Below, in pieces: positions 35,510 through 38,178 of a DNA stretch of 48,927 nt. Source of the stretch: Scytonema sp. RU_4_4 (lineage in GTDB: Bacteria; Cyanobacteriota; Cyanobacteriia; Cyanobacteriales; Nostocaceae). The notes under the pieces are model-generated. The model saw only the letters and a program-made list of their open reading frames with translations, did no database searches and was not told the DNA's origin. Position 1 is the first letter of the stretch, and every line of letters begins with the position of its first letter. The translations under genes and the position numbers were made by a program. The DNA lies in NCBI GenBank assembly GCA_012031965.1, contig JAAUSC010000026.1, positions 1 to 48,927 on the forward strand, read 5' to 3'.

Positions 35510-36268
35510 ATGAGGTCACTAATGCGTCGCAGTGGATTGAGTGTGTTTTTCCCTATCGCCCTGATCGCAAATTGCAGTTCTCAAGTATTAATGCCTAGCC
35601 TAGCTGTGGCAGAATATGCACGGAATGTTGCTCCCACTGAAGTCCAAGAAGCTTATTCTACTGGAGCGACACAGGTCAGTTACCTGTCTCTATTAGAACA
35701 ACAAGTCATTCATGAAATGAACAAGATACGGACAAATCCCAAGGCATACATCTCTGTCTTGGAAAACTATAAACAGCGCTTTCAAGGTACACGAGTTAAA
35801 ATCTCTGATAAAGTCTTGATGCAAACAAAAGAAGGGCTATCAGCCGTTGATGAAGCAATTCAGTTTCTCCAATCAGTTAGTCCTATTGCAGCTTTAACGA
35901 CATCTAGGGGAATGTCTTTAGGTGCTAAAGATCATGTCAAAGATAATGGATCAAGAGGTACGACAGGTCACCAAGGTAGCGATGGTAGTAACCCATCTAC
36001 TCGCATCGACCGCTACGGAAATTGGCAATCTAGTGCTGGGGAAAATATCAGCTATGGTCCTAGTACGGCTCAGGATATTGTCATGCAATTAATTATTGAT
36101 GATGGAGTGCCGACTCGTAGTCATAGAAAAAACATTTTCAACCCCACTTTTAAAGTGGCTGGAGTTGCTCATGGGACTCACGCTAGATACAAAACAATGT
36201 GCGTGATTACTTATGCAGCAGGATATCAAGAGAAGGGAGTATCAGTTTCAGTCAGCGGTCGTCATTAA
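35510..36268 (+). CDS. CAP-domain (SCP/PR1) exported protein
   Basis: A 252-residue protein with a probable signal sequence ([20 protein letters not shown]). The CAP domain covers residues 55-245: [72 protein letters not shown] and [20 protein letters not shown] with the final VITYAAGY. The two His (in TGHQGSD and HRKNIF) and the Glu of GEN are those that bind metal in other CAP domains. The function in bacteria is generally unclear. A relic of a second copy with the same C-terminal sequence lies 200 bp downstream, so there was once a tandem pair. Confidence 0.85.
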
Positions 36269-36535
36269 ACATCACTTTTTGGGTTGGCAATAGGGAATGC
36301 GGAATGGTTCTTTCCTATTCCCTATTACCAGACCAAACAAGTTACGTTTATTTGTCTAACCTGTTGGATGAAAACAGTGATCAGTTACCAATGAGCAATA
36401 ACTTGATAACTGCTTACTGATAACTGTTCACTGATTTAGTCATCTGGAAACCAGTCATAATTTCATGAATCTAATATATTTAATCCTGCTTTTAAGGTGG
36501 CGGGAGTTGCTTTTGGGATTCACTCCACATATAGG

Positions 36536-36807
36536 GTAGTCGCTAAAATGGCGTAAGTCGTAACAAACCGTAGTAATACGGACTACCCCAGATCACTCCT
36601 TTAAGCAAGAGTAGCCGTTATCTCTGAGTGTTAAAGTTCGTACCCTGGGATGTCGAATCAGCTTAGATTCAAGCCAGTCCCAGGCTCTACAACCCAGTAA
36701 TTAAACAGACGAATTTGTTCATTAGCGAGCGTCAGTGTTATTGGGAAAGTACCGGGAGATTAACTGATCGAGGCAAACATTACCAATGAGTTCCTAACAG
36801 GAATAAA
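36536..36807 (+). ncRNA. Predicted IscB omega-RNA region
   Basis: In IscB systems the guide-scaffold RNA is encoded upstream of iscB, and its guide is copied from the DNA just left of the element. This 272-nt space has no gene but strong structure. GGGTAGTC pairs with GACTACCC at the left end, with small hairpins inside (CGC/GCG, CGTagtaatACG). CCTGGGA and TCCCAGG enclose GAATC...GATTC (about 36646-36685). The predicted guide is the 16-20 nt ending at 36535, within the CAP relic (ends CCACATATAGG). Confidence 0.6.
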
Positions 36808-38067
36808 ATGCAAAACTACGTTTTCATTGTTGATGTAAACAAGCAACCACTAAACCCAATTCGCCCCAAGCGAGCAAGAACCCTGCTGATGCGTGGAAAA
36901 GCAGCAGTTCTAAGAATGTATCCCTTTACCCTCATACTAAAAACTGCTGTAGAGAATCCCGTATTAAGACCAGTAGAGTTAAAAATCGACCCTGGTAGCA
37001 AAGTAACGGGACTGGCTTTAGTACAAGATGGCTCAGTTGTATGGGGTGCAAATCTTGAGCATAGAGGCTCCGAAATCAAATCAGATTTAGAGTCTAGATC
37101 TGCTGTTAGGAGGTCAAGGAGAAACAGAAAGACTCGGTACAGAAAAGCACGTTTCTTGAACAGAAAACGCACTCTTAAGTGGCTCGCTCCGAGTCTGATG
37201 CACCGCGTCTTAACAATTGAGACATGGGTAAAAAGACTTTGTAGATATGTTCCAATAACGGGTATTGCAATGGAATTAGTAAGGTTTGACACTCAAGCTT
37301 TGCAAAACCCAGAAATAACCGGTCAGGAATACCAGCAAGGTGAGCTTTTTGGTTATGAAGTCAAAGAATACCTGTTAGCCAAGTGGGGCAGAAACTGTGT
37401 TTATTGTGGTAAGCAAGATGTCCCATTGCAGGTTGAACATATTCACCCAAAGTCCAATGGTGGTAGCGATAGAGTTAGTAACTTGACCATATCTTGTGCT
37501 CGCTGTAATCAAAACAAAGGGAGTAAGTCTATTGAAGACTTCCTAAAAAAGAAGCCGGATTTACTTCGCAAGATAAAAGCAGTACGATTAGCACCATTAA
37601 AAGATGCAGCAGCTGTCAACTCAACCCGTTGGGCATTGTACCAATCTTTGAAAAAGGTTTCTGGATTAAATGTCGCTACCAGTACCGGTGGTCGGACTAA
37701 GTACAACCGGATAAAAAACGGCTTCGATAAAGATCACTGGATCGATGCTTGTTGTGTTGGTGAATCTGGCGATAGAGTTGTTCTAAAGACCAAACAGCCA
37801 ATGATAATTAAATCAACGGGTGTCGGTTCCGGACGACAGATGACACGGACCAACAAATTCGGATTTCCCTGCGCTAAAGCTAAGCAGCGTTATCAGCATG
37901 GTTGGAAGACTGGCGATATTGCTCGTTTCATTGATGGGACAATCGGTCGCATAGTAGTTCAATCAGCATCCCGTTTAGAGATCCGCATAAACAAGCAGAG
38001 AATAGGTGGACTACTAAACTTGTTCAACAAACTCCACTCAGTAGATGGATATAATTATGCGTTCTGA
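36808..38067 (+). CDS. iscB: IscB RNA-guided nuclease (Cas9 ancestor family)
   Basis: A 419-residue IscB. The N-terminal PLMP-type domain is seen in NKQPLNPIRPKRARTLLMRG. RuvC-I is LKIDPGSKVTGLAL with Asp61. An arginine-rich bridge helix follows (RRSRRNRKTRYRKARFLNRK, 101-120). RuvC-II is IAMELVRFD with Glu156. The HNH domain has CVYC (197-200), QVEHIHPKSNGG with His211, and CARC (230-233). RuvC-III is DKDHWIDACCVG with His310 and Asp313. All catalytic residues appear intact. The C-terminal part (GDIARFIDGTIGRIVV) resembles the TAM-interacting region. It would cut DNA matching its omega-RNA guide. There is no frameshift or stop, so recent insertion or activity is plausible. Confidence 0.93.
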   Translation: MQNYVFIVDVNKQPLNPIRPKRARTLLMRGKAAVLRMYPFTLILKTAVENPVLRPVELKIDPGSKVTGLALVQDGSVVWGANLEHRGSEIKSDLESRSAVRRSRRNRKTRYRKARFLNRKRTLKWLAPSLMHRVLTIETWVKRLCRYVPITGIAMELVRFDTQALQNPEITGQEYQQGELFGYEVKEYLLAKWGRNCVYCGKQDVPLQVEHIHPKSNGGSDRVSNLTISCARCNQNKGSKSIEDFLKKKPDLLRKIKAVRLAPLKDAAAVNSTRWALYQSLKKVSGLNVATSTGGRTKYNRIKNGFDKDHWIDACCVGESGDRVVLKTKQPMIIKSTGVGSGRQMTRTNKFGFPCAKAKQRYQHGWKTGDIARFIDGTIGRIVVQSASRLEIRINKQRIGGLLNLFNKLHSVDGYNYAF

Positions 38068-38178
38068 TTTATCCCAAAATAATCCGTTGTACACCGTTTT
38101 TTGGCTATCTAATGACACGGCAGATGTGTGTGATTACTTATGCTGGAGGATATGTAGAAAAATCTTAAAGAACGAAGA

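What the first reader, a model, noticed from the sequence alone, without database searches (positions are those of the whole stretch)
36464..38168. IscB element caught inside a CAP-gene relic, so guide and ends can be read
The two CAP fragments join without a gap as STYR|QMCVITYAGGY, aligning with the intact CAP protein at 35510. This fixes the element to 1585 bp with 2 bp of ambiguity. Known IscB biology places the guide at the left flank, so the guide would be the 16-20 nt ending at 36535 and the TAM would be read from the right flank (CAGATG...). The predicted guide differs at many positions from the intact CAP copy, so the resident paralog should be spared while an unoccupied CAP allele would be cut.
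Basis: partly seen in the sequence, partly recalled or inferred. Interest (0 to 1): 0.85.

Follow-up and report, generated by a model that had tools for sequence, protein, structure and literature searches.

The report
IscB element with readable empty site
A small mobile element that carries the RNA-guided DNA cutter IscB has landed in a cyanobacterial gene, and uninterrupted copies of that gene in sister species show, to within two bases, where it starts and stops, what its guide should be, and which short DNA tag (GGC) probably marks its targets.

Summary
An intact iscB with a HEARO/omega RNA sits near the end of a second CAP gene, of which about 110 bp remain. So: element 36534-38118, guide ending at 36533, target-adjacent motif (TAM) GGC at 38119. 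Seven insertions with recoverable empty sites share a pattern: element start and target agree in two bases and differ at the third (GGG/GGC five times, GAG/GAC and GAC/GAG once each). The resident CAP1 has 5 of 16 guide mismatches and no GGC; within three mismatches the own genome keeps no guide+GGC site. Whether sister alleles (1-3 mismatches in 16 nt) would be cut is unknown. It is a new member of a known family (IscB/HEARO); the predicted GGC differs from the NTGA/NTG TAMs reported for IsrB. No RNA or cleavage evidence exists, and the transposase is unidentified.

The parts
36534..38118 (+). IscB/HEARO mobile element, 1585 bp (equivalent register 36536-38120)
   Evidence: Empty sites in 6 of 6 congeners; same ends in the G003, G081, G001 and G004 copies
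36518..36533 (+). predicted 16-nt guide (20-nt version 36514-36533), host CAP2 sequence
   Evidence: Left flank next to the HEARO start; position inferred from IscB biology (recalled); transcription not tested
36534..36783 (+). omega RNA scaffold (HEARO, RF02033)
   Evidence: cmscan 71.8 bits, E 5e-14, full-length model, below the gathering score of 83; P1 kept with two two-sided changes among four copies
36534..36541 (+). P1 stem, 5' arm (contains the ambiguous GG)
36581..36588 (+). P1 stem, 3' arm
   Evidence: coordinates counted by hand
36808..38067 (+). iscB, 419 aa, uninterrupted (PLMP, RuvC, HNH, C-terminal TAM-interacting region)
   Evidence: NF040563 453.9 bits against a cut-off of 175; Pfam RRXRR and HNH; PDB IscB matches by sequence and fold; PLMP, RuvC and TAM-interacting are recalled domain names
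37960..37983 (+). codons of the QSASRLEI motif (residues 385-392) in the C-terminal region; 13 of 13 GT-type IscBs aligned have R in place of this Q
   Evidence: alignment; coordinates counted by hand from the ORF start
38119..38121 (+). GGC, predicted TAM and insertion target
   Evidence: present in the empty site of 6 of 6 congeners and at other insertions
36473..36533 (+). left fragment of CAP2 relic
38119..38168 (+). right fragment of CAP2 relic with its stop codon
35510..36268 (+). intact CAP1 paralog (PF00188)
36172..36199 (+). CAP1 stretch equivalent to guide + TAM: 5 of 16 mismatches, AAACAATG in place of GGCAGATG
   Evidence: coordinates counted by hand

Best explanation
A non-autonomous OMEGA element of the IscB/HEARO family. 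The DNA from 36534 to 38118 moved as a unit into a GGC site near the 3' end of a CAP gene. The element starts with its guide-RNA scaffold, so the host bases just upstream (ending at 36533) become the guide, and the host bases just downstream (GGC...) are the TAM. IscB loaded with this RNA should cut guide + GGC, that is, the empty site left after the element jumps out or on a chromosome copy that lacks it. Repair from an occupied copy would then restore the element. It should not cut its own left junction, because there the guide sequence is followed by GGG, nor the CAP1 paralog. Shown: ends, empty sites, intact ORF, HEARO RNA sequence, P1 covariation in a few copies, GGC at the target. Inferred: RNA expression, cleavage, TAM use, retention by repair, and an IS200/IS605-type transposase acting in trans.
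For: Empty site in 6 of 6 congeners. IscB equivalog 453.9 bits, with conserved Asp, Glu and His positions aligned to solved IscBs (their catalytic roles recalled), and fold matches led by IscB. HEARO E 5e-14, beginning at 36534. P1 of 8 pairs in 4 of 4 copies, with two pairs changed on both sides. Six further insertions with recoverable empty sites show an overlap of two bases (three in L082) and a third-base difference. Guide+GGC with up to 3 mismatches in G000: two places, the own left junction (GGG, one mismatch) and one unrelated place with 3 mismatches ending GAC.
Against: HEARO is below Rfam's curated threshold (71.8 against 83). No tnpA in the element, and its ends do not clearly resemble the four TnpA loci of the genome (in seven of eight comparisons 34 or more of 100 shuffles reached the score, in one only 2 did). 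No expression or cleavage data. The retention function is inferred from recalled work on related nucleases, not tested. In many congeners the target triplet differs (L117: AAC in 2 of 6; L073: AGC or CGC in 6 of 7 examined; C190: GGG or GAC in 2 of 5), which fits drift but weakens a strict motif. The seven insertions come from related IscBs (the most distant, G102, is 55% identical), so they are not independent tests of a general rule.
Confidence: 0.8

Rival explanations
1. One reading: element 36536-38120, guide ending at 36535, TAM starting at CAG.
For: The DNA alone cannot decide between the two registers (2-bp overlap).
Against: GG pairs in P1 in 4 of 4 copies; the HEARO model's first base aligns at 36534; GGC, not only the C, is in at least one empty site of five insertions.
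Confidence: 0.08
2. The GG on both sides is a 2-bp target-site duplication made by an ordinary transposase, the element proper being 36536-38118.
For: In all seven insertions with empty sites the left and right dinucleotides are identical.
Against: The dinucleotide is constant within a subfamily (GG or GA), not random. Two GT-type relatives (L063, L087) appear to have GT left and AT right, read by eye and without proven empty sites. Lack of duplications in IS200/IS605 and ISC elements is recalled, not tested.
Confidence: 0.1
3. A dead relic: the element is fixed and IscB is no longer active, so guide and TAM have no present consequence.
For: CAP2 has eroded on both sides. Deleted copies exist in G001 (522 bp) and G004 (160 bp). 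The C222 IscB of the same genome has a C-terminus that does not align.
Against: The window ORF is intact, the G003 copy is 92% identical in protein and also open, and the conserved motifs align with solved IscBs.
Confidence: 0.2

Closest known systems
IscB / HEARO OMEGA nucleases (NF040563, RF02033)
   Same: Protein family, upstream HEARO RNA beginning at the element's left end, no tnpA in the element. Sparse association of HEARO with TnpA is stated in PMC9755519 (section 9 read, other passages seen).
   Different: Predicted TAM GGC; Q with S..RLEI in place of R with ..GSF in the C-terminal region.
IsrB (DtIsrB and cyanobacterial CwIsrB, DsIsrB)
   Same: Related protein and omega RNA. DtIsrB has an NTGA/TTGA TAM with its third base G read by R323; CwIsrB and DsIsrB have NTG (PMC9581776, passages and section 8).
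   Different: IsrB has a linker in place of HNH (same paper, passages). Here the HNH is present and the third target base is C. Equivalence of the Arg column to R323 could not be tested.
OgeuIscB, OrufIscB
   Same: Among the nearest solved structures by sequence and Foldseek.
   Different: TAMs given as NWRGNA for engineered OgeuIscB variants and NTAAA for OrufIscB (PMC13180657, passages).
IS200/IS605 elements with TnpB
   Same: Guide from flanking DNA; retention model (recalled; PMC8612924 seen only in search listings).
   Different: TnpB uses a 3' guide and a left-side TAM; here both are mirrored (recalled).

Membership tests
IscB (HEARO) | PLMP, split RuvC, bridge and HNH with catalytic positions | tested here: met
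   NF040563 453.9 bits, cut-off 175; RRXRR and HNH; aligned motifs to IscB chains; fold (model mean pLDDT 72.3)
IscB (HEARO) | HEARO/omega RNA directly upstream of the ORF | tested here: met
   Full-length model, 71.8 bits, E 5e-14, but below gathering 83; P1 covariation in four copies
IscB (HEARO) | RNA scaffold begins at the element's left end, so the guide is host flank and differs between copies | tested here: met
   HEARO starts at 36534 = left end; window, G003 and G001 copies have different flanks, each with an empty site
IscB (HEARO) | conserved motif in the target at the right flank | tested here: met
   GGC at five, GAC at one and GAG at one of seven insertions with empty sites; some congeners carry other triplets there
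IscB (HEARO) | RNA-guided cleavage | not testable with these tools
   needs biochemistry
IS200/IS605-type transposon | TnpA (Y1) in the element | tested here: not met
   Between 36534 and 38118 the ORFs of 80 aa or more are iscB and one on the opposite strand inside it; four TnpA loci elsewhere in the genome without clearly matching ends
IS200/IS605-type transposon | insertion without target duplication next to a fixed short target | tested here: inconclusive
   A GRC or GAG target is seen, but the GG/GA overlap could also be a 2-bp duplication

The most novel reading that the evidence does not exclude
IscB elements carry a three-base self/non-self code. The element's first two bases copy the first two bases of the target, and the third is swapped between G and C, so the nuclease spares its own left junction and cuts the empty site. 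One IscB subclade has moved this code from the RTG type to GRC, together with an Arg-to-Gln change in the TAM-reading strand.
Probability: 0.35. Interest if true: 0.6.

Novelty: new member of a known kind. Interest (0 to 1): 0.42.

Why it matters
Guide, target and TAM of a wild IscB usually have to be inferred without the original site. Here empty alleles from sister species let them be read from natural DNA, giving a direct test of whether IscB protects its element at its own site. If the GGC motif holds, it adds a short, G+C-type TAM to a compact nuclease family. The third-base pattern would explain how such an element avoids cutting itself.

Tried and rejected
Rejected: my first reading that the left end of the G003 copy lies inside the RNA stem (blast overlap). 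The G005 empty site showed it was an alignment artefact. A TnpA partner sharing the element's ends: none clear. The right-end pattern with up to 3 mismatches in the genus gave no excess over its reversed control (222 hits against 228 over 7 genomes; list truncated). Its exact hits among those listed were the window, G003 and G001 copies. Eight loci of the list were compared with the element: two, L117 and L128, are deletion derivatives, one (L131) gave only a 25-nt match and five no match. Empty sites sought but not found for G055 L075 and G102 L078, L079 and L080; C142 (L087) was too diverged. Hits to the C289 (L086) flank were not examined; no empty site was sought for L128. In one search one of seven G102 pieces (L085) was left out and one (L084) cut short. 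Six of the 22 HEARO-bearing loci (L038, L054, L055, L059, L061, L062) were not put into the protein alignment. Mapping of the TAM-reading residue onto DtIsrB by sequence failed. Literature on cyanobacterial IscB insertion sites or TAMs: seven searches; the titles and abstract starts listed showed none, but searches listed only part of their hits (10 of 42,887; 25 of 36; 12 of 29). The founding papers (Altae-Tran 2021, Kapitonov 2015) are not held; Weinberg 2009 is recalled only.

Full report
What is there. Window 36808-38067 encodes a 419-aa protein that matches NCBI's IscB model at 453.9 bits (cut-off 175) and Pfam RRXRR and HNH. Its closest solved relatives by sequence are IscBs. An AlphaFold2 model from 8 sequences (mean pLDDT 72.3, pTM 0.62) finds IscB structures at ranks 1-8 and IsrB at rank 9. 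Upstream, 36534-36783 matches the full HEARO model with 71.8 bits and E 5e-14, below Rfam's gathering score of 83; a whole-window search at gathering level found nothing.

The organism. The genome (G000, 7.3 Mb) groups with six congeners. One, G001, is Brasilonema angustatum HA4187-MV1: its locus L117 is identical over 3017 bp to the named record L196. The genus name for the window is thus an inference.

The empty site. In 6 of 6 congeners CAP1 is followed by an uninterrupted second CAP gene. Window 36473-36535 and 38119-38168 map next to each other in it with a 2-bp overlap. The occupied site reads TATA[GG]GTAG...ACAC[GG]CAGATG and the empty sites read TATAGGCAAATG (G004) or TACAGGCAGATG (five genomes). 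The relic has lost the 5' part of CAP2 and part of the sequence after it.

Register. Three results put the GG on the element's left side and GGC on the host's right side. The HEARO model's first position aligns at 36534. In the window, G081, G003 and G001 copies P1 has 8 standard pairs starting with those Gs, in the same register (best of five tried), and positions 5 and 7 change on both sides (four copies, so few independent events). GGC is present before insertion, C included.

Other insertions. Besides the window, six insertions gave an empty site. G003 cox2-like gene: GGG/GGC, G005 empty. G001 deletion derivative L117: GGG/GGC, GGC in 4 of 6 congeners and AAC in 2. G055 L073: GGG/GGC, GGC in the best-matching genome G056 and AGC or CGC in the other 6 of 7 examined (13 loci available). 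G102 L082: GAG/GAC, 5 of 5 examined of 7 hits; this is repeated sequence from two genomes, so not five separate witnesses, and here the overlap is three bases because an A precedes on both sides. G000 C190: GGG/GGC, GGC in 3 of 5 loci, GGG and GAC in the other two. G000 C222: GAC/GAG, 2 of 2. In each pair the element's first triplet is given first, the target second. L075, L078, L079 and L080 gave no spanning empty site, and C142 was too diverged. Further right junctions without empty sites are GGC (G081, G004 L128, G055 L074 and L075) or GAC (the other seven G102 copies). Thus element and target agree in two bases and differ in the third, always G against C in these seven. GGC makes up 0.8% of trinucleotides in the window, both strands.

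TAM-reading region. In an alignment of 20 IscBs, the five GGG/GGC proteins have Q at a column followed by S..RLEI, and the 13 with a GT-type left end have R there, followed by ..GSF in 12 of 13. G102 differs from both, and C222's C-terminus does not align. Other cyanobacterial IscBs fetched later (L190-L192, L194), whose element ends were not determined, also have R with a different context. The other GGG/GGC proteins are 58-92% identical to the window protein and the two GT-type proteins of the same genome 51%, so this may be one evolutionary change. In DtIsrB the third TAM base G is read by Arg323 (PMC9581776, passages). That the R column here is the same residue was not shown.

What would be cut. 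The guide+GGC pattern (19 nt, up to 3 mismatches) occurs in G000 at the own left junction, where GGG replaces GGC, and once elsewhere with three mismatches ending in GAC. CAP1 has mismatches at positions 2, 6, 8, 10 and 15 from the TAM and AAACAATG in the TAM place. G004's empty allele has one mismatch (position 5). The other five have three in 16 nt (positions 2, 9, 10) plus one at 17, all with GGC. So the exact empty allele of this species was not seen, and cutting of sister alleles cannot be assumed.

Mechanism. The likeliest working model is retention: the element leaves or is missing on one chromosome copy, IscB cuts the restored guide+GGC site, and repair from an occupied copy puts it back. 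Cyanobacteria often hold many chromosome copies (recalled), which would suit this. Mobility must come from a transposase in trans. Four Y1 transposase genes were found in the genome, but none clearly shares the ends. The 522-bp and 160-bp derivatives keep both ends and have lost most of iscB. They show that the ends persist as a unit but not whether they moved after the deletion.

Verdict. The element is a well-resolved new member of a known family. The predicted GGC motif and the third-base pattern are the parts worth testing.

Noticed in passing
L117 993-1514 (G001 = Brasilonema angustatum HA4187-MV1): A 522-bp derivative of the same element: omega RNA (with an insertion) and both ends kept, most of iscB deleted; empty sites are present in congeners.
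   Followed up: yes
L128, reverse strand, about 1355-1514 (G004): A 160-bp derivative with both ends, bounded by GGG and GGC; it has lost nearly all of the RNA and all but the 3' tail of iscB.
   Followed up: partly
L037 and L038 (G000 C174 and C212): Two IscB copies of one genome share about 60 bp upstream of the modelled HEARO start of L038, so their left end, and the guide, probably lie further out than the Rfam model suggests.
   Followed up: partly
L035 (G000 C222): IscB with element start GAC and target GAG; its C-terminal region does not align with the others, perhaps a frameshift.
   Followed up: partly
window 36373-36437: An intergenic repeat lies where the 5' part of CAP2 is missing; most of the listed matches (43-52 per genome in all) are to this stretch.
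   Followed up: no
L078-L085 (G102) and L073-L075 (G055): Eight and three IscB copies with identical protein scores in one genome, signs of recent movement; in two G102 copies (L081, L084) the common left end was not found.
   Followed up: partly
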